This document shows, piece by piece, positions 44,229 to 60,008 of a stretch of 64,000 bases of DNA. The stretch covers positions 124,001 through 188,000 of the forward strand of contig QCOF01000001.1 of assembly GCA_003209915.1 (NCBI GenBank), in the 5' to 3' direction. Numbering within the stretch: the first letter of the stretch is position 1; each line of letters starts with the position of its first letter. Under the pieces are notes generated by a model. It was not told where the DNA came from and made no database searches. It saw nothing but the letters and a program-made list of their open reading frames with translations. The DNA comes from Pelagibacteraceae bacterium AG-430-E20. Its GTDB lineage: Bacteria; Pseudomonadota; Alphaproteobacteria; Pelagibacterales; Pelagibacteraceae. Both the position numbers and the translations under genes were made by a program.

Positions 44229-44242
44229 GAAGATAAAAACAG

Positions 44243-44278
44243 TTCTTTAAAAAAAAATAAAAGATACTATTTAAAGAA
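44243..44278. repeat. 9-bp inverted repeat just upstream of gshA
   Basis: TTCTTTAAA (44243-44251) and its exact complement TTTAAAGAA (44270-44278) with an 18-base A-rich spacer; the right arm ends 2 bases before the gshA ATG. It could fold over the ribosome-binding region or be an operator. With only A/T-rich arms this may be chance. Confidence 0.3.
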
Positions 44279-44280
44279 AC

Positions 44281-45576: not shown

Positions 45577-46492
45577 AATTGTTGCTATTCAAGGTAACCA
45601 TCCTTCAAAATTAAATCCAGTTTCAGATACAAGTATTTTTTTAGCTAGTGAGGCTCAAAATAGAAATTATAAGATATTCTATTATGAGCCAAAAGACCTT
45701 TCAATTATCAATTCAAAAGTAATTGCAACCGGTTTTTATGTAAAATTTAATTATACTCAAAATAAATTTTTTAAAATATTAAAAAAATGTAGTTTAGAAC
45801 TCACTAAATCTAAATTTATACTTATACGACAAGATCCGCCCTTTAATCTTGAATATATTTCAACGACTTACATTTTGGATACTATTAAACATAAAGTAAA
45901 AATTTTAAATAACCCTACCTCTATAAGAAATGTTTCAGAAAAGTTGTATTCAGCAAAATATCAAAAATATATGCCAGATACTATTTTTAGTAGAAACATT
46001 AATGAAATAAAAAAATTTTTTAAAAAGAACAAAAAGGTTATTTTAAAACCAATCCATAGTTACAGCGGGAACGATATACATTTATTAAAAAAATTTAATT
46101 CAAAATTAATCAATAGTTTCATCAAAAAACATGATCACATTATGTTGCAAAAATTTTTACCTAAAATTAGTAAAGGAGATAAAAGAGTTTTTATAATCAA
46201 TGGTAAAGTTTGTGGAGCAATCTCTAGAATTCCAAAGAAAGGATCGATTTTAAGTAATATGAGTAAAGGTGCAAAGCCTGTTAATATTAAACTGAGCTTA
46301 AATGAAAATAAGATATCAAGATTGATTGCTAAGGATTTAAAAAAAGATAATATTTTTTTTGCAGGAATAGATTTCATTGATCAAAAACTTAATGGAGATA
46401 TTAATGTAACCTCCCCAACTGGACTTAAAACCCTTTTTGATTTATCAGGCATAAATCTTGCTAAAATTTTTTGGAAAGAACTAAAAGCGTGA
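45566..46492 (+). CDS. gshB: Glutathione synthetase
   Basis: ATP-grasp ligase adding glycine to gamma-glutamylcysteine. Typical segments are IRQDPPFNLEYISTTYILD, VILKPIHSYSGNDIHLLKKF (ATP-grasp), GDKRVFIINGKVCGAISRIP, and FFAGIDFIDQKLNGDINVTSPTGLKTLFD. Length 308. It overlaps gshA at its start and shares GTGA with the next transporter at its end, so glutathione synthesis and a possible exporter are cotranslated. Confidence 0.96.
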   Translation: MTNKIVAIQGNHPSKLNPVSDTSIFLASEAQNRNYKIFYYEPKDLSIINSKVIATGFYVKFNYTQNKFFKILKKCSLELTKSKFILIRQDPPFNLEYISTTYILDTIKHKVKILNNPTSIRNVSEKLYSAKYQKYMPDTIFSRNINEIKKFFKKNKKVILKPIHSYSGNDIHLLKKFNSKLINSFIKKHDHIMLQKFLPKISKGDKRVFIINGKVCGAISRIPKKGSILSNMSKGAKPVNIKLSLNENKISRLIAKDLKKDNIFFAGIDFIDQKLNGDINVTSPTGLKTLFDLSGINLAKIFWKELKA

Positions 46493-47349
46493 AAACTTTA
46501 AACGAGCAGCAAAAAGGTTCTTTGCTAGCCTTTGTTGCGGTGATGTTTATTACGCCTGATAGTTTGTTTATAAGATTAGCAAGTGTTGATACCTGGAGTT
46601 TAGTTTTTTATCGAGGTATAATTCCTTTTTTTACCGTGTTGATCGGAATGTTACTTATCTACAAAGCAAATTTCTTCAAAATGCTTTTCACGAGTGGGCG
46701 TCATGGAATAATTTATATAATAACTTTTTCCATAACCAATATTGCTTTTGTTGTTTCAATTCAGAATACGAATGTAGCCAATACATTGGTTATGATTGCT
46801 ATGGCGCCTATGCTTTCAGCAATTTTAGGCGCAATATTTTTAAAAGAGATGCCAGATAGTAAAACTTGGATAGCAATCGCAGTAACTTTTTTTGCTGCTA
46901 TATATATATTTTACGACTCCTTACAATTAGGGAATATTTTTGGAGATTTATTGGGCCTCGTTTGTGCCTTAGGATTGGCAGTTGGAGCAGTTACGATTAG
47001 ATCTGCTAAAACAAAAAACCTAGTTCCTGCTGCTGTAGTCGGTAAGCTGTTGGTTGCAATATTTGCCATTTTCTTTATTGAAACTTATGGCTTAGTTGGG
47101 AGAGACCTATTAATTGTTCCTCTAATGTGTGTAATGTGTGTTGCGATACCTTTTGTTTTAGTCACTATTGCACCAAGATTTATACCTGCAGAAGAGGTGA
47201 ATTTATTCTTTTTACTAGAGACAATCATCGGGCCAATTTGGGTCTGGATGGTCATTAAAGAACAACCAAGTCTAGAAACAATTCAAGGAGGTATTGTCAT
47301 CATTTTGACAATAGCAATTCATTCTTTTCTTAAACTAAAAAAATCATAG
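46489..47349 (+). CDS. EamA/DMT-family transporter next to glutathione genes
   Basis: About 286 residues with ten predicted helices in two EamA halves (first helix SLLAFVAVMFITPDSLFI, later SIQNTNVANTLVMIAMAPMLSAILG, end FFLLETIIGPIWVWMVIKEQPSLETIQGG). I chose the GTG at 46489, which overlaps the gshB stop as GTGA, over an in-frame TTG at 46471 inside gshB. Family members export small metabolites; tight coupling to gshAB suggests a thiol or amino-acid substrate, but that is inference from position only. Confidence 0.85.
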   Translation: MKTLNEQQKGSLLAFVAVMFITPDSLFIRLASVDTWSLVFYRGIIPFFTVLIGMLLIYKANFFKMLFTSGRHGIIYIITFSITNIAFVVSIQNTNVANTLVMIAMAPMLSAILGAIFLKEMPDSKTWIAIAVTFFAAIYIFYDSLQLGNIFGDLLGLVCALGLAVGAVTIRSAKTKNLVPAAVVGKLLVAIFAIFFIETYGLVGRDLLIVPLMCVMCVAIPFVLVTIAPRFIPAEEVNLFFLLETIIGPIWVWMVIKEQPSLETIQGGIVIILTIAIHSFLKLKKS

Positions 47350-47366
47350 CCCTATTACAATTAACT

Positions 47367-47384
47367 TGATTTGGCCACAAATCA
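47367..47384. repeat. Short perfect hairpin between two transporter genes
   Basis: TGATTTG (47367-47373), loop GCCA, CAAATCA (47378-47384): a perfect 7-bp stem with a 4-base loop in the 54 bp gap between the EamA and MFS genes. No T-run follows, so it is not a standard terminator. It may be an operator for the MFS gene (ATG 20 bases later) or an RNA structure. Confidence 0.4.
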
Positions 47385-47403
47385 GAAATAGATAGCGATT
47401 CAT

Positions 47404-48729
47404 ATGAACAAGGTGTTAAAAAATTCGTGGGCTTTATTTTTAGGTATGGGAGCAATTATGCTCGCCTACGGTTTTCAAGGATCACTTTTAGGAGTTCGAG
47501 CAGTTAAAGAAGAGTTTAGTTTAACTGCAACAGGATTTATGATGTCTGGTTATTTCGTTGGATATTTTATAGGAGCAATGACTATTCCTAAATTAATATT
47601 AAGAGTTGGTCATATAAGAATCTTTGCAGTTTTTGCATCAATTGCATCTTTAGTGATTTTAATTCATGCTGTGATTGTTACTCCATTTGTTTGGTTCATA
47701 TTAAGAGTACTTACAGGTATCAGTATGGTCTCTATTTATACTGTTGCTGAAAGTTGGTTAAACGATAGAGCAAGTAATAAGAACAGAGGAAGTGTCTTAT
47801 CAATCTACATGGTGATTTTATATGGTTCAATGGGAATGGGAATGTTTTTTTTAAACTTTAGTAATCCAATAAATTTTGAACCTTTTGTATTGATATCAAT
47901 TATAACATCAGGTGCGCTAATTCCAATTTTACTTACCAAAAGAAAACCTCCGACATTTAAAAAAATAGAAACTATGTCAATTCAAGAAGTTTATATTTCA
48001 TCTCCCTTTGGAATGGTAAGTGCATTTTTTTATGGAACAATTCAATCCGCGTTATTCACATTGCTAGCTGTATACGCTGCGGGAATGAATTTTTCAATTT
48101 TTCATATTTCATTAGTTACATTTTTGTTAGCAATTTCTGGCGCAGTTTCACAGTGGCCAATAGGAAAAATATCAGACATATATGATAGAAGAAAAGTAAT
48201 TATAGTTGTGAGTTTTGCTGCAGCCTTTTTTGCATTATGTGCAATTTTTTCTTCTGCACAAATGTATTTACCTGAAGGACTAGGAACGAGTAAATTTTGG
48301 TTTTATATTTTTTTAATTTTATTTGCCTTTTGTAGTTTACCAATGTTCTCATTGATTCTTGCTCACACAAATGATTTTATTCCTAAAGAAAAATTTGTTG
48401 CAGCTGGTGCAAGTTTACAATTTATTTTTGGTTTAGGTGCGATTGGTGGTCCATTTTTGTGCTCAATTTTTATGAACATAGCCGGTCTTAATGGTTTTTT
48501 TGTTTTTCTAATGTTTTTTCATATTTTGATTGGAATTTATGGTGTCTATAGATCTAGAATTAGACCAGCAGTTGAAAATCCAGACTCTCAATTTATTGCA
48601 ATGCCACAGTCAATTACGCCTGCAGGTATTGAATTAAGCCCAACTACAGAGCCAATTAATGAACCAACAAAATTAGCATCTGAAACTGCTGTTGAAGAAA
48701 TTAAAGCTTCTGATCAACAATCTAACTAA
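47404..48729 (+). CDS. MFS transporter (YcaD-like)
   Basis: A 441-residue major facilitator with 12 predicted helices. VRAVKEEFSLTATGFMMSGYFVGYFIGAM and GRAS-like SVLSIYMVILYGSMGMGMFF fall in the first half; the second-half loop SQWPIGKISDIYDRRKVII is the MFS D/R motif. It resembles YcaD-type carriers annotated for sugar or amino-acid efflux. A polar C-terminal tail of about 55 residues (from RIRPAVENPDS) is probably cytosolic. Substrate unknown; flanked by the glutathione and ergothioneine genes. Confidence 0.85.
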   Translation: MNKVLKNSWALFLGMGAIMLAYGFQGSLLGVRAVKEEFSLTATGFMMSGYFVGYFIGAMTIPKLILRVGHIRIFAVFASIASLVILIHAVIVTPFVWFILRVLTGISMVSIYTVAESWLNDRASNKNRGSVLSIYMVILYGSMGMGMFFLNFSNPINFEPFVLISIITSGALIPILLTKRKPPTFKKIETMSIQEVYISSPFGMVSAFFYGTIQSALFTLLAVYAAGMNFSIFHISLVTFLLAISGAVSQWPIGKISDIYDRRKVIIVVSFAAAFFALCAIFSSAQMYLPEGLGTSKFWFYIFLILFAFCSLPMFSLILAHTNDFIPKEKFVAAGASLQFIFGLGAIGGPFLCSIFMNIAGLNGFFVFLMFFHILIGIYGVYRSRIRPAVENPDSQFIAMPQSITPAGIELSPTTEPINEPTKLASETAVEEIKASDQQSN

Positions 48730-48799
48730 GTTTAATAATCAGCGTCGTTTTGTGAAGTGAACTATGTTGGCTTTATTGTTATTTTGATAAAGTAATCTT

Positions 48800-50023
48800 A
48801 TGAATAATAACGATATTCAGAACTTTTTTGAGAAAACACGAAATCAATCGATTAAAATTGTTGAAAATCTAAGTCCAGAGGACATGAATATCCAATCGAT
48901 GGAAGATGCTTCACCTATTAAATGGCATCTTGCTCACACTACTTGGTTTTTTGAAAAATTCGTTTTAAGCAAAATAAAGTCTAATTATAAATATTTTAAT
49001 GAGGATTATAATTATTTATTTAATTCCTATTACGTAAAAGCAGGCCCAAGATATACAAGATCACTACGAAGCATAATTTCACGCCCAGGAATTGAAGAGG
49101 TTCTAGAATATAGGCAAACTATTAACCATAGAATTACAGAGTTATGTCAATCAAGTAACTCCAATTTACATATGATTGAAGTAGGCTGTCACCATGAAAT
49201 GCAACATCAAGAATTAATGTTAACAGATCTACAGCATGGTTTAAGCTTCAACCCTACTGGTCCCAAGTACGATCCAACTAAAAAAGATATTGCAAGTGAA
49301 AATATTAAACAAGAATGGGTTGGTTTTGAAAAAGCTATTAAAAATGTAGGTATAGATGATGAAAATTTTTCTTTCGATTGTGAGCGACCTAAACATGAAG
49401 TTTTAATATTACCTTTTGAAATATCAAACAAGTTAGTTACAAATGGTGAATGGATCGAGTTTATTGATAATAATGGTTATAATAAAAGTGAATATTGGTT
49501 GTCCGATGGATTTTCAAAATGCCAGGAGGAAAATTGGCAGTCTCCTCTTTATTGGAAAAAAAAAGAAGGTAATTGGTTTCACTTCACTTTAAATGGAAAT
49601 AAAGAAATAGATCTCAATGCGCCTGTAAGTAATATTAGTTACTTTGAAGCTGACGCTTTTGCAAGATGGAACAATAAACGACTTCCAACAGAATTTGAAT
49701 GGGAGGTTGCTTCTAATGATCATGTTCAAGGGAATTTTTTAGAAAACAAAATATATCAGCCATATTCAAAAAAAAATGGTGTAGATTTAAATCAACATTG
49801 GGGACACGTATGGGAGTGGACTTCTTCAAACTTCTCTCCTTATCCAGGGTTTAAATATCACAATGATGATATCAGCGAATACAATGGTAAATTTATGGTC
49901 AACCAAATGGTGTTAAAAGGAGGCTCTTGCCTTACACCTAAAGATCAAATGAGAAAATCATATCGTAATTTCTTTTATCCTCATCAAAGATGGCAAATGT
50001 CTGGGCTAAGACTTGCTAAATGA
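48800..50023 (+). CDS. egtB: Ergothioneine synthase EgtB (iron-dependent C-S bond-forming sulfoxide synthase)
   Basis: Oxygen-dependent coupling of a thiol (Cys or gamma-Glu-Cys) to trimethylhistidine. The N-terminal DinB-like domain has WHLAHTTWFFEKFV with ligand candidate His46, and CHHEMQHQELML with His132 and His136, together the three-His iron site. The C-terminal FGE-sulfatase domain runs from residue ~180 (VTNGEWIEFI, WNNKRLPTEFEWEVA, GHVWEWTSSNFSPYPGF) to the family ending YRNFFYPHQRWQMSGLRLAK. Length 407. EgtA, EgtC and EgtE homologues are not adjacent. A 112 bp gap separates it from the PhyH gene. Confidence 0.92.
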   Translation: MNNNDIQNFFEKTRNQSIKIVENLSPEDMNIQSMEDASPIKWHLAHTTWFFEKFVLSKIKSNYKYFNEDYNYLFNSYYVKAGPRYTRSLRSIISRPGIEEVLEYRQTINHRITELCQSSNSNLHMIEVGCHHEMQHQELMLTDLQHGLSFNPTGPKYDPTKKDIASENIKQEWVGFEKAIKNVGIDDENFSFDCERPKHEVLILPFEISNKLVTNGEWIEFIDNNGYNKSEYWLSDGFSKCQEENWQSPLYWKKKEGNWFHFTLNGNKEIDLNAPVSNISYFEADAFARWNNKRLPTEFEWEVASNDHVQGNFLENKIYQPYSKKNGVDLNQHWGHVWEWTSSNFSPYPGFKYHNDDISEYNGKFMVNQMVLKGGSCLTPKDQMRKSYRNFFYPHQRWQMSGLRLAK

Positions 50024-50135
50024 GAGAATTTTTATATGCCTACAACAAAAAGCTAAACTTTTTTCAGATAAATCAATCATTACATGTCAAAACGCGCTGT
50101 TACTAAAAAAAAATAAAACTATAAGAACAACCTAA

Positions 50136-51134
50136 ATGTTCAAATCTAATACCAATATAAATTCTAAACTAACTGATGCTACGGATATTAGTAAACCATG
50201 GGATAAGGATAATCAGGCCTGGTGGGACTGGTATGTTAGTCTCGCAGATAATGATGTTAAAGAAAATGAAATTATTAATGCCGATCCTTTACCAGATATT
50301 ACAATGCCCAGTGATGATGAAGTTATCTCAGAATTAGCTAAGCCCTACCATTTAACTAATGATCAAATTGATTTTTTTAAAAAAAATGGTTTTATTAAAC
50401 TTAAAAAAGTTTTTTCACCTGGGGCCGTGCTAAAACTTAGATCTGAGTTAATTAGTTTATTAAAAGAAGAATTTAAGGTTGATCCGGATAAAGGAGCACA
50501 TGCGCGTTTCCTTAGTCTTGAAATGATTTGGCCTGACAACGCACTGCTTCGTGCTTATGTATTATCACCTCGTCTAGGGCAAATTTCAGCAGATCTTCTT
50601 GGAGTACCAGCTGTTAGACTTTATCATGACAATGTATTAGCTAAACAAGCTGGTTGTGGTCGTACCCCGTGGCACTTCGACGATCATCATTTTCCTCTAG
50701 ATACCAATGACGTAGTGACTGCTTGGGCACCTGCACAGCCAATTCCTCTTGAGATGGGACCGCTTTCTTTCGCCTATCCGCTCGATGTACACAAATTAGT
50801 CAATGCAGTTAGGTTTGAAAAAACTGGTACCGGATATGACCGTGGGGTCACAGATGTTTTTTCAAAAAATAATGTAAGTGTGAATGAAACCCCATTTGAA
50901 CTGGGTGAAGTTAGCTTTCATCATAATTTAAATTTTCATACCGCTTCACGCAACCGAACTAATCGTAGTCGAGTGGCTCTTGCCAATACTTATTATCGTG
51001 ATGGAGCGAGAATAGTTAATTCACCTACAATGGTTTCTGGTGACTGGCAGAAATTTGTACCAAATGTCAAACCAGGAGACTTGGCTGCTAGTCCACTAAA
51101 TCCGATTTGTTGGCCAGTAAAAGATAAATCATGA
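50136..51134 (+). CDS. Phytanoyl-CoA dioxygenase (PhyH) family Fe(II)/2-oxoglutarate oxygenase
   Basis: Predicted small-molecule hydroxylase, 332 residues. The iron triad is His180-x-Asp182 in TPWHFDDHHFPLD and distal His268 in NFHTASRNRTNRSR, with Arg279 well placed for 2-oxoglutarate, so it should be active. The first ~70 residues (SKPWDKDNQAWWDWYVSLADN) precede the PhyH fold and are not part of the core domain. It overlaps the next methyltransferase by ATGA. Ten of its 14 Arg codons are CGN, unlike most neighbours, hinting at transfer. Its substrate is unknown; the setting between egtB and egtD suggests a betaine or thiohistidine. Confidence 0.85.
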   Translation: MFKSNTNINSKLTDATDISKPWDKDNQAWWDWYVSLADNDVKENEIINADPLPDITMPSDDEVISELAKPYHLTNDQIDFFKKNGFIKLKKVFSPGAVLKLRSELISLLKEEFKVDPDKGAHARFLSLEMIWPDNALLRAYVLSPRLGQISADLLGVPAVRLYHDNVLAKQAGCGRTPWHFDDHHFPLDTNDVVTAWAPAQPIPLEMGPLSFAYPLDVHKLVNAVRFEKTGTGYDRGVTDVFSKNNVSVNETPFELGEVSFHHNLNFHTASRNRTNRSRVALANTYYRDGARIVNSPTMVSGDWQKFVPNVKPGDLAASPLNPICWPVKDKS

Positions 51135-52051
51135 AAAACATAAATAATCAAAATGGATTAAATTCGATTTGGACTAAAAGTCTTGCTCGTAATCTTCATC
51201 CTAATGGTAATGCTTTAGTTGATCATTTAAAAACAATCCATCAAGAAAATACTGGATTTACTGAAGCATGTGCAAGTTCTTGTCGTGATGAAGCTGGACG
51301 TAATAGTTATGAATGGCTAAGTGAAGTTGTGCCTGATAACGCGAGTTTGAGTGTATTAGATCTTGCTTGCGGGTCAGGGCCGTTATTAAAAATTTTATTT
51401 GATCGTAATAAAAATTTAAATTTAAAAGGTATAGACATGTGTCCTGAAGAATTAGTATTAGCTAAGACTCGTCTTAAAAATAGTAGAGTTAATCTTATCG
51501 AGTCAAAAGCACAAAATTTGACAGCAATCAATGATAACTCTATAGACATTGTGTTATGTCATTGGGCTTTGACATTAATGGACCCGATATTTCCTGTTTT
51601 AGAGGAAGTCAAACGAGTTTTAACTTCTGAGGGTCAATTTGCAGCATTAGTTGATGGGCCAATGAATGCAGCATCTGGTTATGCAGAGGTACATGATTTA
51701 ATTTATAGTTATGTTCAAGAAGAAATACCTAGTTATGGAGCAATTGATTTAGGTGATCCAAGGATACGAGGAACTGAAAGTCTAAGTAATCTTGCACGTA
51801 AAGCTTTTCCACAAGCAAATGTCACTATCGAAACAAATGTTGTATCTATGGAAGGACCAGTTACTAAAGTAGCTGAAATTGCTTCAGGATTTTTTTACGC
51901 AGCATTTATCTTAAAAACAGAAAAAAGAAAATTAATGATTAAAAATCTATCTAACATGCTCGCAATATCCAAAGTGAGCACAGACAATGAAAGACAAGGG
52001 CGATTTTCAATGCCAATTAGTCGTCTTTTAGTTAGGCAAAGTATAAAATGA
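51131..52051 (+). CDS. Class I SAM-dependent methyltransferase (type 11 like)
   Basis: A 306-residue methyltransferase. SAM-binding motif I is VLDLACGSGPLLKIL (residues ~74-88), followed by LKGIDMCPEELVLAKTRL, then the motif IV region IDIVLCHWALTLMDPIFPVLEEVKRVL. It is not EgtD-like (no FFPGSTIGNF motif) and lacks signs of an rRNA/tRNA enzyme, so a small-molecule N-, O-, S- or C-methyltransferase is likely. It overlaps both neighbours by 4 bases (51131-51134 and 52048-52051). Ten of 15 Arg codons are CGN, like the PhyH gene. Confidence 0.82.
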   Translation: MKNINNQNGLNSIWTKSLARNLHPNGNALVDHLKTIHQENTGFTEACASSCRDEAGRNSYEWLSEVVPDNASLSVLDLACGSGPLLKILFDRNKNLNLKGIDMCPEELVLAKTRLKNSRVNLIESKAQNLTAINDNSIDIVLCHWALTLMDPIFPVLEEVKRVLTSEGQFAALVDGPMNAASGYAEVHDLIYSYVQEEIPSYGAIDLGDPRIRGTESLSNLARKAFPQANVTIETNVVSMEGPVTKVAEIASGFFYAAFILKTEKRKLMIKNLSNMLAISKVSTDNERQGRFSMPISRLLVRQSIK

Positions 52052-52962
52052 AATCATTTTTACAAGAAGTAAGTATCGGTTTGAGTAAAAAAAATAAGGA
52101 GTTGAGTTCTAAATGGTTTTATGACTTTCGTGGATCAAAACTTTTTGAACAAATTACCAAGCTAAAAACATATTACCCAACAAGAACTGAAAGAAAAATT
52201 TTAAAAGATAATAAAATTGAAATTGCTAATAAAATAGGTAAGCGAGCAGTTTTAATTGAACCCGGTGCCGGGGACTTCAAGAAAATAGCTATTTTTCTCA
52301 ATAGTTTAGATAAGCCCAAAAAATATATACCTTTGGATATTTCAGAAGATTATATAAACAAGATATCTCAAAGTTTTAAAAAAAAATTCCCAAAAATAGC
52401 TATTACTCCTAAGGGATATGACTTTTCAAGAAATAATAAACTACCTTTTAAAATCAATTCATCAGAAAATATAATTATATTTTTTCCAGGATCAACCATT
52501 GGTAATTTCAAAGAGAAGGATGCTGTTAAATTTTTAAAAATGTTAAAATCAAAATTTAAAGCAAAAAAAATTATCATTGGTGCTGATTTAGTAAAAGATA
52601 TCCCAACTCTAATTACTGCTTATGATGACAAAAAAGGGGTGACTGCAAAATTCAATAAAAATATTTTACGAAGAATTAATACTGAATTAGGTGCAGATAT
52701 AAATCTGAATTCCTATAAACATTTAGCCATTTATAATAAACAAAAAAAAAGAATTGAGATGAGACTAAAATCTAAAAAAAGAAATAATATTAGAATTAAT
52801 GGTTCAAATTATTTAATTAAAAAAAATGAAGAGATACATACAGAGAATTCACACAAATATACGATTAAATCCTTCAAAAACTTAGCTAATAAAGCTGGAT
52901 GGAAACTAGATAAAACTTGGGTTGATGGCAAAAAACTTTTTAGTGTTCATTGTCTAAGTTAA
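52048..52962 (+). CDS. egtD: L-histidine N-alpha-methyltransferase EgtD
   Basis: Trimethylates histidine to hercynine, the ergothioneine precursor. It shows TYYPTRTE, IIFFPGSTIGNF, IGADLVKD, ITAYDDKKGVTAKFNKNILRRINTELGAD, and EIHTENSHKYTIKSF, which are the conserved substrate- and SAM-binding segments of EgtD. Length 304 is slightly under the family norm. It is coupled to the methyltransferase gene by a 4-base overlap. Arg codons are mostly AGA (8 of 11), in line with the rest of the window. Seven bases separate it from convergent dddK. Confidence 0.95.
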   Translation: MKSFLQEVSIGLSKKNKELSSKWFYDFRGSKLFEQITKLKTYYPTRTERKILKDNKIEIANKIGKRAVLIEPGAGDFKKIAIFLNSLDKPKKYIPLDISEDYINKISQSFKKKFPKIAITPKGYDFSRNNKLPFKINSSENIIIFFPGSTIGNFKEKDAVKFLKMLKSKFKAKKIIIGADLVKDIPTLITAYDDKKGVTAKFNKNILRRINTELGADINLNSYKHLAIYNKQKKRIEMRLKSKKRNNIRINGSNYLIKKNEEIHTENSHKYTIKSFKNLANKAGWKLDKTWVDGKKLFSVHCLS

Positions 52963-52969
52963 ATAAGTT

Positions 52970-53350
52970 TCACTCATCAGAAAAATATTTAACTTCCTTA
53001 AATCGATCTGTTGGGAAAAGCCAATAAAATCCAAATGTTTCATCACTATTATTTTTAAGTGCATGTTTAGCATTATTAGAAATATAAACTAAGTCCCCTT
53101 TTTTAATCTCTTCAAGTTCACTATCTTTATTTAAAGTTGCAGAACCATTGGTTACAACATAAATTTCGTCTGGGGCATGATGATGTAAAGTTAATTTTCC
53201 ACCGGGTAAAACTTCCGCAAAACCACAAGAAATTCCTTTGCTTCCATCAATATCTGCATCAACTAAAAACTTCCATCTCACTCCAGGATATTTCTCACTT
53301 GTTTTCCATTCCTGATTGGAGATTGAATTTAAATTTTTAACAAATATCAT
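52970..53350 (-). CDS. dddK: DMSP lyase DddK-like cupin
   Basis: Cleaves dimethylsulfoniopropionate to dimethyl sulfide and acrylate. A 126-residue single-domain cupin. His56, His58, Glu62 and His96 (in TLHHHAPDEIYVVTNG and NAKHALKNN) fall on the metal ligands, and Tyr64 and Tyr122 on the catalytic tyrosines, at the same numbers as published for DddK of Candidatus Pelagibacter ubique. The N-terminus MIFVKNL, the segment EKYPGVRWKFL and the tail FPTDRFKEV also fit my memory of that protein. Identification rests on this match, not on a search. It converges with egtD and has its own promoter. Confidence 0.86.
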   Translation of the reverse strand: MIFVKNLNSISNQEWKTSEKYPGVRWKFLVDADIDGSKGISCGFAEVLPGGKLTLHHHAPDEIYVVTNGSATLNKDSELEEIKKGDLVYISNNAKHALKNNSDETFGFYWLFPTDRFKEVKYFSDE

Positions 53351-53360
53351 AAGAGTCTAG

Positions 53361-53390
53361 ATTATATAAATTTTAGATTTTTATGAACAA
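53361..53390 (-). promoter_or_regulatory. Predicted dddK promoter
   Basis: On the minus strand: a perfect -10 TATAAT (53366-53361) and a -35-like TTGTTC (53390-53385), spacer 18 bases. Transcription would begin only a few bases before the ATG at 53350, giving a very short leader. An imperfect palindrome (53355-53376, outer arms TCTA/TAGA) overlaps the -10 and the start of the divergent small gene. Confidence 0.45.
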
Positions 53391-53610
53391 AATTAATGCT
53401 AGTAAACTCTGGAAAATTATTCAGGAAGCTGGCGATTATTTACAAGGGCAATTACCTGATCATCCTAATCATCCTAAGGGTAGAAACGCCTATGCCCATG
53501 TAGCTATTTGCGTTAAATCTAAATTTAATGCGAGTTACAAAGATATCCCTGATGAACAGCTTGAGAAAGTTTTAAAATATATTGAATTTTTAAAGCAAAA
53601 TCCAAATTAG
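53383..53610 (+). CDS. Small conserved-looking protein, function unknown
   Basis: A 75-residue soluble protein with balanced composition (less Lys/Asn-biased than random AT-rich ORFs): KLWKIIQEAGDYLQGQLPDHPNHPKGRNAYAHVAICVK then SYKDIPDEQLEKVLKYIEFLKQNPN. It looks like a genuine small globular domain with two helices flanking a Pro/His-rich loop. No Cys, no membrane segment. It diverges from dddK over 32 bp and ends 4 bases before convergent amidinotransferase. I do not recognise the family. Confidence 0.65.
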   Translation: MNKINASKLWKIIQEAGDYLQGQLPDHPNHPKGRNAYAHVAICVKSKFNASYKDIPDEQLEKVLKYIEFLKQNPN

Positions 53611-53614
53611 AGAA

Positions 53615-54730
53615 TTATTGCTTGGGAAAATAATCCTTGAGCTCCCCTTCTCTATATACATCTGCAGTACAGCAATGAAGTCCTCCACCAAATGCATATG
53701 CATCTCGTAGTTCTACTGGTAACACTTCCATTCCAAGTTTATCTAATTGTTCTGCTTGATAAGTCTCACTTTTTTCAACGCATACTGTTTTAGAATCTAA
53801 AACTAATACATTCATAGATAACCATGTTGATGAATAACACAAAGGAGGTGGCTCGTTGTGTGCTGGCTGCGCACTATCTATTATTTCCCATCCATTATTT
53901 TCAAACAATTTTCTTTGTTCTTTTGGAAGTCTTCTTTGAGGATTATTTATTATCAACCCTTCTTTTATTGGTGTGAAGGTTGCATCAATATGAATTGGGT
54001 ACGGATCACCAGGAAAATTCACTGCATGAACTCTGTGATCTCTATAATGTCTTTTTAACCAATCAATACCTTTTAAGTTAGTAGTAAAACCATGTTGCAC
54101 TACTAAATCTTTTCCAAATCTTAATACATCAGCTGCATCAAACAATGGTTCTTCTTCAGTAGTTACAAAATGTTTCTTTTCAGTCCATTCTAATCTTTTT
54201 TGAACTCCAATTTTATCTGATAAGTAATCTTTTCTATAATCAAGATCTGTCAATCTGGGTTTTGGTGCAGACTCATGCCTCATATTTGGATCTTGATTAT
54301 AATAATCTTGTAGAAGTGGTCTGTAGCATAAATATTCAAACCAACGACAACGATAGCTCATTGTTGCCTCTAAAATTTCATTACCAACAGTTAACAAAAC
54401 ATCTCTAGGTGGCATACAGCCAAACATGGTTTCTGCTTCCCAATCAGGAGTAGATGTTTTTTGATTAAATTCTATAGGTGTTGGTCGATCAACTTTAATT
54501 CCTCTTTTCTGAAGTATATTTGAAAAATTATCTAAAAGTTGATTGGCTTTATCAACAGTATCTTTAGTTCTTGGTCCAAACTGGCCTCGCATATCACTAT
54601 CTTCAGGAACTTTTGCATCGAGTGCTGGTTCGGGTGCTGGAATACATGTGCCATCAGCTCTTCCAACAATTACATGTTTGAGTGGATCCCATTCATTCCA
54701 ACTATTCACAATAATATTATTTTTATTCAT
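53615..54730 (-). CDS. Arginine:glycine amidinotransferase-like enzyme
   Basis: Predicted to transfer the amidino group of arginine to an amine such as glycine, yielding guanidinoacetate and ornithine. The 371-residue protein has the StrB/AGAT propeller landmarks: WNEWDPLKHVIVGRADGTC at the N-terminus, the catalytic acid in EPLFDAADVLRFGKDL, the His in YPIHIDATFTPI, and nucleophile Cys353 in FGGGLHCCTADVYR. The acceptor amine cannot be proven from sequence. It starts 3 bases after the upstream EamA transporter, so the two probably share substrate or product. Converges with the small gene. Confidence 0.9.
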   Translation of the reverse strand: MNKNNIIVNSWNEWDPLKHVIVGRADGTCIPAPEPALDAKVPEDSDMRGQFGPRTKDTVDKANQLLDNFSNILQKRGIKVDRPTPIEFNQKTSTPDWEAETMFGCMPPRDVLLTVGNEILEATMSYRCRWFEYLCYRPLLQDYYNQDPNMRHESAPKPRLTDLDYRKDYLSDKIGVQKRLEWTEKKHFVTTEEEPLFDAADVLRFGKDLVVQHGFTTNLKGIDWLKRHYRDHRVHAVNFPGDPYPIHIDATFTPIKEGLIINNPQRRLPKEQRKLFENNGWEIIDSAQPAHNEPPPLCYSSTWLSMNVLVLDSKTVCVEKSETYQAEQLDKLGMEVLPVELRDAYAFGGGLHCCTADVYREGELKDYFPKQ

Positions 54731-54733
54731 AGA

Positions 54734-55639
54734 TTAATTTAAAGCGATGTATCTTTTGTTCCATCTCATAATCAAACTGTAATAAATTATTGAAACAAAA
54801 AGAAAAAATCCGCCAATAATTGTGTTTGTTGTAGGAACCTCATTGATACCAAATAGTGGTAGCCATACCCAGAATATTCCACCCACTACTTCAGTTAAAG
54901 ATAGCAATGTAAGTTCTGCTGCTGGAATAGCTTTTGAGCCTATTGAATATAAAATTAAACCAAAGCAAACTAATGTTCCATGTAAAGAAAATAAAGTTCC
55001 ATTATAGCTAGATGAAAAAAATACTAAATCGTTTGTAATTATTGCAATAGAAGAAAAAACAACACAAAAAAATCCAGCAAAAGCAACTGTTGTAAATTTT
55101 GGAGTTTCTTTTCTCCATCTGAGTGATACTGAAAAAACTGAGAAACCAATTGAAGCTGTTAGACCAAATACAAATCCAATTAAAGATTTTTCACTCGTAT
55201 TACCAAGTGCCATAATTAATATACCTGCAGTAGCAATGATAATTGAAATCCAAACGTTTAAGGAGATTTTTTCTTTTAAAAACAAAAAAGCTAATAATGC
55301 TGTAAAAAAAGGCATTGCAGCTAAACAAAGTAGTGTCACCGCAGCACTAGTATTTGTTATTGAGTAAATAAAGGTGATCATTGCAACACCTAAACCAGAG
55401 CCTCCAATTATTCCAGATAAACCTATTTTAAAGTAATTTTTATAAAAATTTTTTCCTTCTTCAAAAAATAAATAAAGATTTAATAAAATGAAAATAGTTA
55501 AACCTCTTCCAAAAATATATTGCCATGGGACTAATTGGGGATTGTCCATGTATCTCACAACTAAAGGACCAAATGACCACAGTAACCCCGCAAACAAAAC
55601 AACTGGAATAGCAATTTTGGGGCTTCTAAACTCAATCAT
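54734..55639 (-). CDS. EamA/DMT-family transporter upstream of amidinotransferase
   Basis: A 301-residue, ten-helix transporter in two EamA halves (IAIPVVLFAGLLWSFGPLVVRYM at the start, SAAVTLLCLAAMPFFTALLAFLFLKEK mid-protein, IPAAELTLLSLTEVVGGIFWVWLPLFG late). It resembles the glutathione-linked EamA protein at 46.5 kb in layout and key segments, so the two may be paralogues. Cotranscription with the amidinotransferase suggests export or uptake of guanidinoacetate, arginine or a related compound, by position only. Confidence 0.86.
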   Translation of the reverse strand: MIEFRSPKIAIPVVLFAGLLWSFGPLVVRYMDNPQLVPWQYIFGRGLTIFILLNLYLFFEEGKNFYKNYFKIGLSGIIGGSGLGVAMITFIYSITNTSAAVTLLCLAAMPFFTALLAFLFLKEKISLNVWISIIIATAGILIMALGNTSEKSLIGFVFGLTASIGFSVFSVSLRWRKETPKFTTVAFAGFFCVVFSSIAIITNDLVFFSSSYNGTLFSLHGTLVCFGLILYSIGSKAIPAAELTLLSLTEVVGGIFWVWLPLFGINEVPTTNTIIGGFFLFVSIIYYSLIMRWNKRYIALN

Positions 55640-55646
55640 ATGCCGA

Positions 55647-55675
55647 AATCTAATTCTAAATAGAATTTTCTACAA
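55647..55675 (-). promoter_or_regulatory. Candidate promoter with internal palindromic operator (EamA-amidinotransferase)
   Basis: Minus strand: -35-like TTGTAG (55675-55670), 17-base spacer, -10-like TAGATT (55652-55647). A perfect palindrome AATTCTA-AA-TAGAATT (55652-55667) fills the spacer, a place where repressors commonly bind. The ATG at 55639 follows so closely that the message may be leaderless. The rest of the 101 bp gap is A/T-rich, with no other clear signal for the divergent SufU-like gene. Confidence 0.4.
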
Positions 55676-55740
55676 CAAAAATATATTTTAAATCTAAATA
55701 TAAAATCAGTGATATATATGAAATAAAATTAAAAATTTAT

Positions 55741-56139
55741 ATGGATTTAAAAATTTTAGAGATTGCTTCGGATACAGAAAATAACAAAAATATCAAAAAC
55801 TACACTCATGCTGCAAAATCCAAAAATCCTTTATGTGGTGATGAAATTCAAATTAAGTTAGTCATTAAAAATGAAAAACTTATTGATTTTGGTTACCAAG
55901 GAAAATCATGTGTTTATTGTCAGGCTACTGCGAGTTTGTTATCAAAAAATTTGATAAACTCCAAAAAAAATAAAATTAAAGAGCTGTGTGATTATGCAAA
56001 ATCTTTTTTTAATAAAGAACAAGAAAGTATTGAAAAAAAATGGTCTTTTTTAAATAAATTGTTTGATCAAAAAAATATATCAAGAAAAGAATGTATTCTT
56101 CTTCCTTTCAATGCCTTAAAAAAGATTATATCAAATTAA
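55741..56139 (+). CDS. SufU/IscU-like Fe-S scaffold or sulfur-transfer protein
   Basis: A 132-residue NifU N-terminal-type domain. Three conserved cysteine regions are present: KNPLCGDEIQI, GKSCVYCQATASLLS (two Cys instead of the usual one), and SRKECILLPFNAL, matching the zinc/Fe-S ligands of SufU/IscU. In SUF systems SufU accepts sulfur from SufS. Here it is 50 kb from the suf operon in this window and 3 bases before an HPP membrane gene. Whether it serves as scaffold or sulfur shuttle is open. Confidence 0.85.
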   Translation: MDLKILEIASDTENNKNIKNYTHAAKSKNPLCGDEIQIKLVIKNEKLIDFGYQGKSCVYCQATASLLSKNLINSKKNKIKELCDYAKSFFNKEQESIEKKWSFLNKLFDQKNISRKECILLPFNALKKIISN

Positions 56140-56142
56140 ATT

Positions 56143-56607
56143 ATGGGAAATTTAAAGCAATCATTCTTTGCAGGCCTTTTTTCGATTATTACAATCGGAA
56201 TACTTACTCTTTTAACTTACAAAACTGAATACGGAATATTTTTGATTGCTTCTTTTGGGTCTTCAATGGTTCTGCTCTACGGACATCCAGAAAGTCCTTT
56301 CGCACAACCAAAAAATGTTTTCTTTGGTCACGTCCTTACAACAATTGTAGGAATGATTGTTTTATACTTTATCCCTTTACCTTTATATTTAACGCTTCCT
56401 TTAGCTGTAGGTTTTGGTGTTGGATTGATGATATTATTTAATGTAACTCATCCACCAGCTGGTGGTAATCCCATTATAGTCATAATGGGTAGTGTGTCGG
56501 TAGACTACTTATTGACCCCTGTGATTTCTGGTTCAATAATCATTCTACTTTTTGCAATAATTCTCAATCGATTTATCTTAAAAAAAAATTATCCCTCTAA
56601 GAAATAA
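56143..56607 (+). CDS. HPP-family membrane protein
   Basis: A 154-residue protein with four predicted helices. The motif IASFGSSMVLLYGHPESPFAQPKNVFFGHVLTT and the HPPAGGNPIIVIMGS segment that names the HPP family are both intact. HPP proteins are small integral membrane proteins; a cyanobacterial member is linked to nitrite transport, but most are uncharacterised. It follows the SufU-like gene by 3 bases and probably shares its transcript. Confidence 0.9.
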   Translation: MGNLKQSFFAGLFSIITIGILTLLTYKTEYGIFLIASFGSSMVLLYGHPESPFAQPKNVFFGHVLTTIVGMIVLYFIPLPLYLTLPLAVGFGVGLMILFNVTHPPAGGNPIIVIMGSVSVDYLLTPVISGSIIILLFAIILNRFILKKNYPSKK

Positions 56608-56682
56608 TTTGTTTGCTAGCCCATTAAAAATGAGGTTAGATGGCCGAAAATAAATTAATATTTATTACATACAGGAGAGTAA

Positions 56683-57882
56683 ATGAAGATATTGTGCGTA
56701 TTATATGACGATCCTAAAGGTGGAATGCCAAAATCATATCCCCTAAGTGATCTACCAAAATTAGAAAAATATCCAGATGGAATGACTTTACCTAGTCCAA
56801 AAGGTAGAGACTTCACACCAGGTGAATTATTAGGATGTGTTTCAGGAGGATTAGGATTAAGAAAATATTTAGAGTCTAATGGTCATGAATTTATTGTTAC
56901 AAATAGTAAAGATGGAGATGGATGTGAAGCTGATAAACATATCGTTGATGCTGATATAGTTATATCTCAACCATTTTTTCCTTACTATTTAACAAAAGAA
57001 AGAATTGCAAAAGCTAAAAATTTAAAAATGGCTATTACTGCAGGAATAGGATCAGACCACGTTGATTTACAAGCAGCAATGGATAACAAAATTGATGTTG
57101 TAGAAGTCACATTTTGTAATTCAAGATCAGTTGCCGAACATATTGTTATGATGATTGTTTCAATGGTAAGAGATTATCATAATCAACATAGAATTGTTAA
57201 TGAGGGTGGTTGGAATATTGCTGACGCAGTTCAAAGATCTTACGATGTTGAGGGTATGCATATTGGAACAGTTGCTGCAGGTCGTATCGGTTTAGATGCA
57301 CTTAGAAAGATGAAACCTTTTGATGTACATTTACATTACTTTGACAGGCATAAATTACCTGACAGTGTTGAAAAGGAATTAAATTTAACTTTTCATGAGT
57401 CTGTAGAATCTATGGTTAAAGTTTGTGATGTAGTGACAATAAATTGTCCTCTCCATCCAGAAACTGAAAACTTATTTGATGATGCAATGATAAGTAAAAT
57501 GAAAAAAGGTGCTTATATTGTAAATACTGCTAGAGGAAAAATCTGTAACCGTGAGGCTATTGCAAAAGCTTTAGAAAGTGGACAGTTAAGTGGTTATGCG
57601 GGAGATGTTTGGTTTCCACAACCAGCTCCAAATGATCATGTATGGAGAACTATGCCAAATCATGGAATGACACCACATACTTCTGGAACTTCATTATCAG
57701 CTCAAACAAGATATGCTGATGGAGTAAGAGAAATTTTGGAATGTTTCTTTGAAGGTAGTGAAATTAGAGATCAATATCTTATTGTAAAAGACGGCCAATT
57801 AGCTGGAATGGGTGCTCACTCATACAGTAAAGGATCAGCTACTGGTGGATCTGAAGAAGCGGCTAAATATAAGAAAAAATAA
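56683..57882 (+). CDS. fdh: NAD-dependent formate dehydrogenase
   Basis: Oxidises formate to CO2 with NAD, cofactor-metal-free. The 399-residue protein follows the 400-residue Pseudomonas-type enzyme throughout: FTPGELLGCVSGGLGLRKYLE, AGIGSDHVDL, TFCNSRSVAEHIVMMI, nucleotide-binding GTVAAGRIGLDALR, NTARGKICNREAI (catalytic Arg), and TPHTSGTSLSAQTRY with the catalytic His near residue 330. AGGAG lies 9 bases before the ATG. A hairpin after the stop suggests monocistronic expression. It probably drains formate from C1 metabolism for NADH. Confidence 0.95.
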   Translation: MKILCVLYDDPKGGMPKSYPLSDLPKLEKYPDGMTLPSPKGRDFTPGELLGCVSGGLGLRKYLESNGHEFIVTNSKDGDGCEADKHIVDADIVISQPFFPYYLTKERIAKAKNLKMAITAGIGSDHVDLQAAMDNKIDVVEVTFCNSRSVAEHIVMMIVSMVRDYHNQHRIVNEGGWNIADAVQRSYDVEGMHIGTVAAGRIGLDALRKMKPFDVHLHYFDRHKLPDSVEKELNLTFHESVESMVKVCDVVTINCPLHPETENLFDDAMISKMKKGAYIVNTARGKICNREAIAKALESGQLSGYAGDVWFPQPAPNDHVWRTMPNHGMTPHTSGTSLSAQTRYADGVREILECFFEGSEIRDQYLIVKDGQLAGMGAHSYSKGSATGGSEEAAKYKKK

Positions 57883-57897
57883 CTCAAAAAAATACTT

Positions 57898-57933
57898 ATT
57901 AAAGGTAGTTTACTAAAAGTTGCTACCTTTAAT
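57898..57933 (+). terminator. Terminator-like hairpin after formate dehydrogenase
   Basis: A perfect 11-bp stem, ATTAAAGGTAG (57898-57908) and CTACCTTTAAT (57923-57933), with a 14-base loop. It has an A-rich run before it and T/A-rich sequence in the descending arm, 16 bases past the stop. There is no long T-run after it, so efficiency is uncertain. Confidence 0.55.
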
Positions 57934-57972
57934 ATAATAGACTCAATTCAAGTTTTTTGTTTATGATGGTTA

Positions 57973-58548
57973 ATGAAATTTTTTACTATCATATTTTTTA
58001 TTACCTCATTTATTACTGCAGCTGAAGCTAATCAAAAGGGTAAGGCATATTTTGCTGGTGGATGTTTTTGGTGTATGGAAGAAGTTTATGAAAAATTAAG
58101 TGGAGTAGAAGAAGTGATATCAGGTTACTCTGGGGGCACTACAGAAAACCCGACCTATAGAGAGGTGACTTATGGTAAAACTGGTCATTTTGAGGTTGTT
58201 GAAATTGTCTATGACAAAGAAATCATTTCTTTTAAAGAATTACTCAATATTTTTTGGAAAAATATAGATCCCTTTGATCCATATGGGCAATTTTGCGATA
58301 AAGGATATAGCTACAGATCAGTCGCGTTTTATCAAAATGATGAAGAAAAAAAACTGATAGAAAATAGTGTAAAAGAATTAGAAAAAAAGTTTAACAAAGA
58401 GATTGTTACTTACGTAAGAAGTTTTGATAAATTTTACGAAGCTGAAGTTTACCACCAAGATTTTTATGTTAAAAAGTTTCAAAGATATTTGGAATATAAA
58501 ACAGCTTGTAGAAGAGAAGAGATTTTAAATAATATTTGGAACTTATAA
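57973..58548 (+). CDS. msrA: Peptide methionine sulfoxide reductase MsrA, probably exported
   Basis: Repairs Met-S-sulfoxide. After an N-terminal hydrophobic stretch (FFTIIFFITSFITAAEA), a probable signal peptide with AEA cleavage site, the catalytic domain starts YFAGGCFWCMEEVYEKL with the nucleophile Cys of GCFWC. GYSGGTTENPTYREVTYGKTGHFEVVEI and FDPYGQFCDKGYSYRS are family core. Resolving-Cys candidate is in EYKTACRREEI. Length 191. selO starts 4 bases downstream, so an oxidative-repair pair is likely. A periplasmic site for MsrA is less common than a cytosolic one. Confidence 0.94.
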   Translation: MKFFTIIFFITSFITAAEANQKGKAYFAGGCFWCMEEVYEKLSGVEEVISGYSGGTTENPTYREVTYGKTGHFEVVEIVYDKEIISFKELLNIFWKNIDPFDPYGQFCDKGYSYRSVAFYQNDEEKKLIENSVKELEKKFNKEIVTYVRSFDKFYEAEVYHQDFYVKKFQRYLEYKTACRREEILNNIWNL

Positions 58549-58552
58549 ATTT

Positions 58553-60007
58553 GTGAAAAATTATATTAATTGGAATTTTGATAATTCTTATTCAAAATTA
58601 CCAGAAGCTTTTAAGGAAATTATTAAACCTGTTTCAGTTTTAAATCCTGAGTTGGTTATCTTAAATGAAAACGTAGCAAAGGAATTAGGGCTTGATTTTT
58701 CTAAAATAGATAAAAATGAATTATCTGCTCTATTTGCTGGAAATATTCTGCCTCAAGGAAGTAGTTCTATAGCCCAAGCTTATGCTGGACATCAATTTGG
58801 ACATTTTACAATGTTAGGTGATGGAAGAGCAGTTTTAATTGGTGAACATGTAACTAATCAAAAAAAGCGATACGATATTCAATTCAAAGGATCTGGCAGA
58901 ACTTCTTTTTCGAGAGGTGGAGATGGTCGAGCGGCATTAGGTCCAATGCTTAGAGAGTATATTATAAGTGAAGCTATTCATTCATTAAACATACCAACAA
59001 CGAGAAGTCTTGCTGTGACTAAAACTGGAGAAAAGGTGGTGAGGGAAAATTTACTAGAAGGTGCAATACTAACACGAGTTGCCTCAAGTCATATCCGAGT
59101 TGGAACATTTCAATACATCGCTGCAAAACAAATTATTGATGAATTGAAAATGTTAGTTGATTACACAGTTGATAGACATTATCCAGAAATTAAATCATCC
59201 AGAACAAAGGCGGTAGATTTATTGAATCTAGTAATTGAAAAACAATGTCAGCTAATAGTTAATTGGATGAGAGTTGGATTTATTCATGGAGTGATGAACA
59301 CAGATAACATGGCGATTTCAGGTGAAACTATAGATTATGGTCCTTGTGCTTTTATGGATCAATATGATCCCAAAACTGTTTTTAGTTCAATTGATAAATT
59401 TGGAAGATACTCATTTTCTAATCAAGCACCCATTGCTAAATGGAATTTAGCTAGATTTGCTGAGTGTCTTATTCCTCTTATCGATAAAAATGAAGACCAG
59501 GCTATTAAGACTGCAACTCAAATTATAGATAACTTTCAAAATATTTATGAACAAAAATGGTTGGATATGATGAAATCTAAACTTGGTTTAATTGGTGATA
59601 ATAAAGATGATTTAAAACTTATTAATTCCTTATTGAATTGGATGGAAGAAAGTAAAGCAGATTATACAAATACTTTTTGTTATTTAATGGATATGCCAAT
59701 TAAGGATGAAATCTATAAAGATAAAAGATTTATAGAATGGGTACAAGCATGGAACAATCGATCAAATTTAGACAATTCAAATAAAGAAGATCAATTTCAA
59801 TTGATGAAAAAAGTTAATCCAGTCATTATTCCTAGAAACCATAAGGTAGAGACGGCATTATCTGATGCAAATAAAAATAACTATGAAACACTTTATAAAT
59901 TATTATCTGTGATACAAAATCCCTATAACCCTAAAGTCGATGTTTTGGAGTATCAATCACCAGCTCCAGAATCAAAAGAAAAATATCAAACGTTTTGTGG
60001 GACTTAA
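58553..60007 (+). CDS. selO: Protein adenylyltransferase SelO (YdiU)
   Basis: Pseudokinase-fold enzyme that AMPylates proteins, tied to redox homeostasis in E. coli. Recognisable segments are GDGRAVLIGEH, YDIQFKGSGRTSFSRGGDGRAALGPMLREYI, TTRSLAVTKTGE, ILTRVASSHIRVGTFQY, GFIHGVMNTDNMAISGETIDYGPCAFMD and the C-terminal cysteine in YQTFCGT. Length 484. The start is GTG at 58553. Translationally close to msrA; the stop is one base from convergent FAD oxidoreductase. Confidence 0.95.
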   Translation: MKNYINWNFDNSYSKLPEAFKEIIKPVSVLNPELVILNENVAKELGLDFSKIDKNELSALFAGNILPQGSSSIAQAYAGHQFGHFTMLGDGRAVLIGEHVTNQKKRYDIQFKGSGRTSFSRGGDGRAALGPMLREYIISEAIHSLNIPTTRSLAVTKTGEKVVRENLLEGAILTRVASSHIRVGTFQYIAAKQIIDELKMLVDYTVDRHYPEIKSSRTKAVDLLNLVIEKQCQLIVNWMRVGFIHGVMNTDNMAISGETIDYGPCAFMDQYDPKTVFSSIDKFGRYSFSNQAPIAKWNLARFAECLIPLIDKNEDQAIKTATQIIDNFQNIYEQKWLDMMKSKLGLIGDNKDDLKLINSLLNWMEESKADYTNTFCYLMDMPIKDEIYKDKRFIEWVQAWNNRSNLDNSNKEDQFQLMKKVNPVIIPRNHKVETALSDANKNNYETLYKLLSVIQNPYNPKVDVLEYQSPAPESKEKYQTFCGT

Positions 60008-60008
60008 G

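What the first reader, a model, noticed from the sequence alone, without database searches (positions are those of the whole stretch)
52970..53350. DMSP lyase DddK candidate beside the ergothioneine cluster
A 126-residue cupin places His56, His58, Glu62, Tyr64, His96 and Tyr122 at the very positions reported for metal binding and catalysis in Pelagibacter DddK. It implies this organism releases dimethyl sulfide from DMSP. It sits next to thiol and methylated-amine genes, which makes this stretch an organosulfur neighbourhood.
Basis: partly seen in the sequence, partly recalled or inferred. Interest (0 to 1): 0.7.

Follow-up and report, generated by a model that had tools for sequence, protein, structure and literature searches.

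The report
DMSP lyase gene in SAR11 bacterium
This is very probably an ordinary copy of a known SAR11 ocean-bacterium enzyme that splits the algal compound DMSP (and its oxidised form) into acrylate and dimethyl sulfide or dimethyl sulfoxide; its place beside an ergothioneine gene looks like an accident of genome history rather than a shared pathway.

Summary
It is a DddK: 87 of 124 residues (70%) identical to the crystallised, assayed Pelagibacter enzyme (E 1e-59; next solved cupin 31.7 bits), and it also keeps the five aromatic residues that hold the sulfonium. The six residues alone prove little: 4 of 8 distant cupins (26-37% identical) share them. dddK was found in 27 of 399 genomes of the genus. 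The family is known, and published kinetics favour DMSOP (giving DMSO) over DMSP, so 'releases DMS' is only part of the prediction. The 'organosulfur neighbourhood' is not supported: dddK faces egtD tail to tail; 18 of 27 dddK genomes gave no egtD and 42 of 51 egtD genomes gave no dddK (many are incomplete). Within the closest egtD clade, though, 9 of 10 carry it. Across 32 dddK genomes the gene occupies at least five sites: after egtD (9), beside an ABC permease gene and tmm (16; tmm itself seen in 14), near pnp/fabI (3), others (4). Relatives offer more telling neighbours: tmm 18-20 bases upstream, or a TRAP-transporter run ending in dddK.

The parts
52970..53350 (-). dddK, cupin DMSP/DMSOP lyase, 126 aa
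   Evidence: ORF; E 9.9e-60 to PDB 6a53; identity 87 of 124; six best-ranked PDB chains are DddK
53183..53185 (-). His56 codon (metal ligand); His58 at 53177-53179, Glu62 at 53165-53167
   Evidence: residues; roles from PMC12582016 and PMC10686828; codon positions by arithmetic from the ORF start
53159..53161 (-). Tyr64 codon (catalytic base)
53063..53065 (-). His96 codon (metal ligand)
52985..52987 (-). Tyr122 codon (holds the carboxylate; gate)
52048..52962 (+). egtD, histidine N-alpha-methyltransferase; context only, convergent with dddK, 7 bases apart
   Evidence: TIGR03438 354 bits (cut-off 290.9); PF10017
48800..50023 (+). egtB; context only
   Evidence: TIGR03440 525 bits (cut-off 360)
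53383..53610 (+). 75-aa ORF of unknown family that marks the right edge of the variable slot after egtD; context only
   Evidence: no Pfam match at 1e-5
53615..54730 (-). amidinotransferase-like protein; context only
   Evidence: 295 bits to arginine:glycine amidinotransferase 1jdx

Best explanation
The ORF is an intact dddK of a SAR11 bacterium, in the same genus as the genome that encodes the crystallised Pelagibacter enzyme. The protein folds as a single cupin barrel. His56, His58, Glu62 and His96 bind one divalent metal; the carboxylate of DMSP or DMSOP binds that metal and Tyr122; Tyr21, Trp26, Phe108, Trp110 and Phe117 hold the positive sulfur group; Tyr64 removes the alpha proton and elimination yields acrylate plus DMS (from DMSP) or DMSO (from DMSOP). 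Acrylate then goes, by inference, through a reductase of the AcuI/YhdH family, and DMS may be oxidised by Tmm; the genome encodes both. dddK here is an independently placed single gene: its position after egtD is a lineage-specific location in a variable slot, not part of an ergothioneine pathway. Shown here: sequence, homology, residues, distribution, placement. Taken from papers on the P. ubique enzyme: the catalytic mechanism. Inferred: that this copy is expressed and active.
For:: phmmer 203 bits, E 9.9e-60 to 6a53 (also 5tfz, 6a54, 6a55), next solved cupin 31.7 bits; 87 of 124 identical; all 11 published active-site residues are present here and in 40 of 41 distinct DddK sequences of 120 aa or more; in a tree of 40 rows it lies with the HTCC1062-type enzyme on one side of a branch with support 100/99, inside a starred 12-row clade (99/99); the six best-ranked PDB chains for the AlphaFold model are DddK (five entries), E 8e-16 to 5e-15, next 1e-9; dN/dS 0.11-0.25 in 12 comparisons. 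(PMC8520302 passage): nine environmental proteins, two of them DddK, were purified and reported functional. Own genome: 571 bits to 3tfh, which I know from recall as Pelagibacter DmdA; Tmm 740 bits over cut-off 675; AcuI/YhdH family 397 bits over cut-off 297, 266 bits to AcuI 5gxf but 250 bits to E. coli YhdH, so the two are not told apart. Placement.
Against: No activity was measured. The AlphaFold model is modest (mean pLDDT 73.8) and residues 117-126, with Tyr122, are under 50. In the tree the outgroups have long branches, one (L126) falls on the unresolved DddK side, and the bootstrap had not settled. For the placement part: within the closest EgtD group (94% identity or more, full length) 9 of 10 genomes carry dddK, and egtD and dddK co-occur more than expected in the genus sample (9 of 27 against 42 of 372, Fisher p 0.003); all nine are one clade at one site.
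Confidence: 0.94

Rival explanations
1. Its main job in the cell is DMSOP cleavage to DMSO and acrylate; DMS from DMSP is a side activity, so net gas output from this gene is small.
For: PMC10686828 (passages): DddK, DddQ and DddU were 2-83.4-fold more efficient with DMSOP, HTCC1062 grew better on DMSOP and induced dddK more with it. PMC5395565 (Table 2 passage): Km for DMSP 82 mM, the highest firm value in that table. All five cage residues that bind either substrate are present. Tmm in the genome could also turn DMS into DMSO (PMC8498191 passages).
Against: DddK does make DMS from DMSP. PMC5395565 argues that high Km values of lyases may simply reflect high DMSP levels inside cells. Nothing in the sequence separates the two substrates.
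Confidence: 0.45
2. A cupin of another function (for example like TM1459 or mannose-6-phosphate isomerase).
For: Generic Cupin_2 match (PF07883 46.8 bits); the fold is common (620 PDB matches at E 0.001 or better); four distant cupins of unknown function share the six residues.
Against: 70% identity to an assayed lyase, all 11 active-site residues, next solved cupin only 31.7 bits; two other distant cupins of the order (L132, L133) lack His56, Tyr64 and Tyr122.
Confidence: 0.02
3. The gene belongs functionally to the ergothioneine/thiol genes beside it (an organosulfur or redox neighbourhood).
Against: Convergent transcription; 18 of 27 dddK genomes have no egtD match, 42 of 51 egtD genomes have no dddK match (many genomes incomplete); with egtD of 82-89% identity the slot holds other genes; dddK lies at other sites elsewhere.
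Confidence: 0.06
4. A decaying, non-functional copy.
For: Relatives at this site include a remnant (L032) and a Glu62Lys copy (L024).
Against: Here the frame is intact, all 11 residues are present and dN/dS is 0.11-0.25.
Confidence: 0.03

Closest known systems
DddK of Ca. Pelagibacter ubique HTCC1062 (SAR11_0394; PDB 6a53, 5tfz, 5tg0, 6a54, 6a55, 8hlf)
   Same: Length, 70% identity, all 11 published metal, catalytic and cage residues.
   Different: Chromosomal site: in G408, whose protein begins with the 6a53 sequence, dddK lies beside fabI, near pnp; here it follows egtD.
DddQ/DddW/DddL-type lyases (Pfam PF16867, membership of these three recalled)
   Same: Cupin lyases of the same reaction type (PMC10686828 passages).
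   Different: Scores 23.4 bits, under the family cut-off of 27. I did not align verified DddQ, DddW or DddL sequences.
DddK-like cupins of the same class (L126, L127, L128, L131)
   Same: Share the six metal and catalytic residues; L128 keeps 10 of 11 active-site residues.
   Different: 26-37% identity; cage residues partly changed; function unknown.
TM1459 manganese cupin
   Same: Closest fold outside DddK (E about 1e-9).
   Different: About 24% identity, about 30 bits.

Membership tests
DddK | Full-length, co-linear similarity to the functionally verified DddK | tested here: met
   E 9.9e-60, residues 1-124 to 1-124; 87 of 124 identical
DddK | Metal ligands His56, His58, Glu62, His96 | tested here: met
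   positions
DddK | Tyr64 base and Tyr122 | tested here: met
   roles
DddK | Aromatic cage Tyr21, Trp26, Phe108, Trp110, Phe117 | tested here: met
   residues from PMC10686828 section 12
DddK | Groups with the verified enzyme apart from other cupins in a tree | tested here: met
   branch 100/99; caution: long outgroup branches, L126 unresolved on the DddK side, bootstrap not settled
DddK | Releases DMS and acrylate from DMSP (DMSO and acrylate from DMSOP) | not testable with these tools
   needs the purified protein or cells
DddQ/DddW/DddL family (PF16867) | Match over Pfam's gathering score | tested here: not met
   23.4 bits against 27
Ergothioneine gene cluster | Same strand or operon with egt genes and shared distribution | tested here: not met
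   convergent, 7 bases apart; 18 of 27 dddK genomes without egtD match

The most novel reading that the evidence does not exclude
dddK is a travelling single gene in SAR11 with at least five chromosomal addresses, and its partners set the fate of its product: where it follows tmm in one run (14 genomes, 18-20 bases apart) DMS is oxidised at once to DMSO, so these cells turn DMSP into DMSO with little gas release; where it ends a TRAP-transporter run in the window's own clade, that transporter brings in DMSP, DMSOP or a related acid. The window's lineage, with dddK alone after egtD, would be the variant that lets the sulfur gas go. Against it: tmm was found in 242 of 399 genomes of the genus, 218 of them without dddK, the window's own genome also has tmm elsewhere, and the TRAP genes occur once without dddK.
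Probability: 0.25. Interest if true: 0.5.

Novelty: new member of a known kind. Interest (0 to 1): 0.22.

Why it matters
SAR11 are among the most abundant bacteria of surface seawater (PMC8498191 abstract passage), and dddK was reported as one of the most prevalent DMSP lyase genes in ocean metagenomes (PMC8520302 passages), although an earlier survey of genomes called it rare (PMC5395565 passage). Which lineages carry it matters for the sulfur-gas budget. This copy itself adds one more SAR11 member. The neighbourhood comparison adds two testable leads: a tmm-dddK pair, which would make a cell convert DMSP to DMSO instead of releasing DMS, and a TRAP transporter run with dddK, whose substrate is open.

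Tried and rejected
Motif argument: rejected as proof, because L126, L127, L128 and L131 carry the same six residues at 26-37% identity. Functional link to ergothioneine: considered and rejected on orientation, distribution and site variability, with the counter-evidence told in the report. Phage carriage: a pattern scan of viral contigs with A1 gave 12 stretches, none a relative. RNA elements: none over gathering score in 44000-61000. TRAP transporter as an obligatory partner: rejected, since G068 has dctQ and dctM right after egtD with no dddK between (L142). A second GcvT-type protein (L053) is a weaker match to 3tfh (300 bits) than the one I call DmdA (571 bits). Rows dropped: G171's 22-bit match, leaving 27 of 399 (G361, a 91-residue piece at a contig edge, was kept); I counted 10 of 297 and dropped G552 (remnant, 37.4 bits) and five matches of 26-31 bits; rows under 120 aa were left out. 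The co-occurrence tests (egtD p 0.003; tmm 24 of 27 against 218 of 372, p 0.002) ignore relatedness and genome incompleteness and are only indicative; the genomes entering them were read off the listings by eye and the egtD overlap recounted.

Full report
What is there. The ORF 52970-53350 on the minus strand codes for 126 residues. Its Pfam match is the generic Cupin_2 (46.8 bits); it falls under the cut-off of PF16867, the DMSP_lyase family (23.4 against 27 bits). Against solved structures phmmer puts DddK of Pelagibacter first (6a53, E 9.9e-60, residues 1-124 to 1-124), with the next cupin at 31.7 bits. Identity is 87 of 124. Genome G408, 'same genus' in the search tool's kinship column, lies on a contig of 1,308,759 bases and has a protein that begins with exactly the 6a53 sequence; I take it to be HTCC1062, the genome length being recalled.

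Active site. PMC12582016 (passages) and PMC10686828 (passages; section 12) name His56, His58, Glu62, His96 as metal ligands, Tyr64 as base, Tyr122 as carboxylate contact and gate, and Tyr21, Trp26, Phe108, Trp110, Phe117 as the aromatic cage. All 11 are present here. Of 41 distinct DddK sequences of at least 120 residues, window included, 40 have all 11; L024 has Lys at 62.

The six residues are not diagnostic. Searching 289 genomes of the class with the DddK alignment, 41 matched at E 0.001 or better, but none except the window's own genome exceeded 81.5 bits. Eight distant cupins (six from the class search, two from the order search) were aligned with DddK rows: L126, L127, L128 and L131 keep all six residues, L129 lacks His56, and L130, L132 and L133 lack His56, Tyr64 and Tyr122. 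The tree of 40 rows puts the window protein with the verified enzyme (branch 100/99; that side also holds the long-branched L126) and in a 12-row clade of egtD-site copies (99/99); the bootstrap had not settled. The AlphaFold model (mean pLDDT 73.8, residues 117-126 under 50) finds DddK first: six chains of five entries at the top of the PDB list.

Distribution. dddK was found in 27 of 399 genomes of the genus after dropping one 22-bit match (an earlier search of 201 gave 14). In the order sample 10 of 297 had a match of 230 bits or more, nine in the same genus and one (G403) in another family. Many genomes are incomplete, so these are lower bounds. All 20 named loci are titled Pelagibacteraceae or Pelagibacterales, 19 full-length and one remnant; that scan uses short patterns of the window protein and so favours close relatives. 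No viral contig gave a relative.

Place on the chromosome. Combining, 32 genomes hold dddK: 9 right after egtD; 16 next to a large ABC permease gene (14 of them with tmm seen on the other side, two ending at a contig edge); 3 near pnp and beside fabI; 2 beside a 144-aa ORF; 1 beside a YajQ-like gene (name recalled, not scanned); 1 elsewhere. The permease matches the choline/betaine-type ABC family below its cut-off and the ATPase is over the ProV subfamily cut-off; the name TmoXWV for a TMAO transporter is recalled. The tmm assignment is firm for L034 (NF058570 745.8 bits over 675; 901 bits to 7d4k). In the 14 cases tmm and dddK are on one strand, 18-20 bases apart. In the window's clade dddK is convergent with egtD, 6-7 bases apart, in every locus seen, and what follows varies: in the 19 full-length named loci DctQ 7, the 75-aa ORF 6, a 129-aa ORF 3, a 429-aa ORF 2, a 153-aa ORF 1. 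Where DctQ follows, it is on dddK's strand, 11 bases away, behind DctM and DctP and in several loci an aldehyde dehydrogenase and an epoxide-hydrolase-like gene. G068 has dctQ and dctM after egtD without dddK.

No link with ergothioneine is needed. An egtD relative (E 1e-30 or better) was found in 51 of 399 genomes; 9 of the 27 dddK genomes are among them, all with dddK at that one site, 18 are not, and 42 egtD genomes gave no dddK. In favour of a link: of the 10 genomes whose full-length EgtD is at least 94% identical, 9 have dddK, and the co-occurrence test is positive (p 0.003); but this is one clade. With EgtD of 82-89% identity (L145-L156) or less (L158-L164) other genes, whose families I did not identify, follow egtD. 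Pfam scans of 27 proteins between 35.5 and 62.4 kb (dddK included) found glutathione synthesis genes, MsrA and SelO, but no methylated-amine enzyme other than EgtD; not every ORF of the window was scanned.

What the cell probably does with it. The genome encodes a DmdA (571 bits to 3tfh), Tmm on another contig and an AcuI/YhdH-family reductase. So DMSP can be demethylated or cleaved, acrylate could be reduced after activation, and DMS could be oxidised. Published work gives DddK a Km of 82 mM for DMSP (PMC5395565 Table 2) and better efficiency with DMSOP. I therefore predict DMS from DMSP and DMSO from DMSOP, the second perhaps more important. tmm is common: 242 of 399 genomes of the genus at E 1e-80, 24 of the 27 with dddK and 218 of the other 372.

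Novelty. DddK in SAR11 is known, and environmental copies have been expressed and reported functional (PMC8520302 passages). PMC8498191 (passages) reports relatively frequent co-occurrence of Tmm and DMSP lyases in one genome. In the passages I read of these two papers physical pairing of tmm and dddK is not mentioned; I did not read the other nine of the 11 papers listed, so I do not claim it is unpublished. For ergothioneine with SAR11 the open-access library returned 0 papers, with Pelagibacter 1 on soil bacteria, for egtD with SAR11 1 on another subject; these are listings only. Papers with dddK and the word TRAP exist (listing) and were not read. Two primary DddK papers, tried by identifier, are not held.

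Noticed in passing
window 50136-52051: A PhyH-type dioxygenase and a class I methyltransferase sit between egtB and egtD, with 4-base overlaps PhyH/methyltransferase and methyltransferase/egtD. In L022, L023, L028, L029 and L031 both are missing and egtB is followed by egtD, so they behave as an optional pair in a SAR11 ergothioneine cluster.
   Followed up: partly
G000 whole genome (best match G000:C1:123445-124341): No EgtE-type lyase over its cut-off (63 bits against 400; all 14 control genomes also match weakly) in a 92% complete genome, so the last ergothioneine step is unassigned.
   Followed up: partly
L034:6375-8110 and 13 similar loci: dddK and tmm lie 18-20 bases apart on one strand beside an ABC permease gene, a candidate DMSP-to-DMSO pair.
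   Followed up: partly
L014:1203-4532: dctP-dctM-dctQ-dddK in one run, 11 bases between dctQ and dddK; possible importer for the lyase substrate or a neighbour by chance (G068 has dctQ and dctM there without dddK).
   Followed up: partly
L128:5702-6145 and L126:5488-5925: DddK-like cupins of the same class; L128 keeps 10 of 11 active-site residues, L126 lies 22 bases behind what looks like an ABC transporter gene set (ATPase 36% like the ProV-type one; the permeases were not scanned). Function unknown.
   Followed up: partly
   Followed up: partly
L024: A dddK with Glu62 changed to Lys (assembly AG-914-G22), probably inactive or a sequencing error.
   Followed up: no
window 53615-54730: Protein 295 bits similar to arginine:glycine amidinotransferase, between the variable slot and an EamA transporter; its role in SAR11 is open.
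   Followed up: partly
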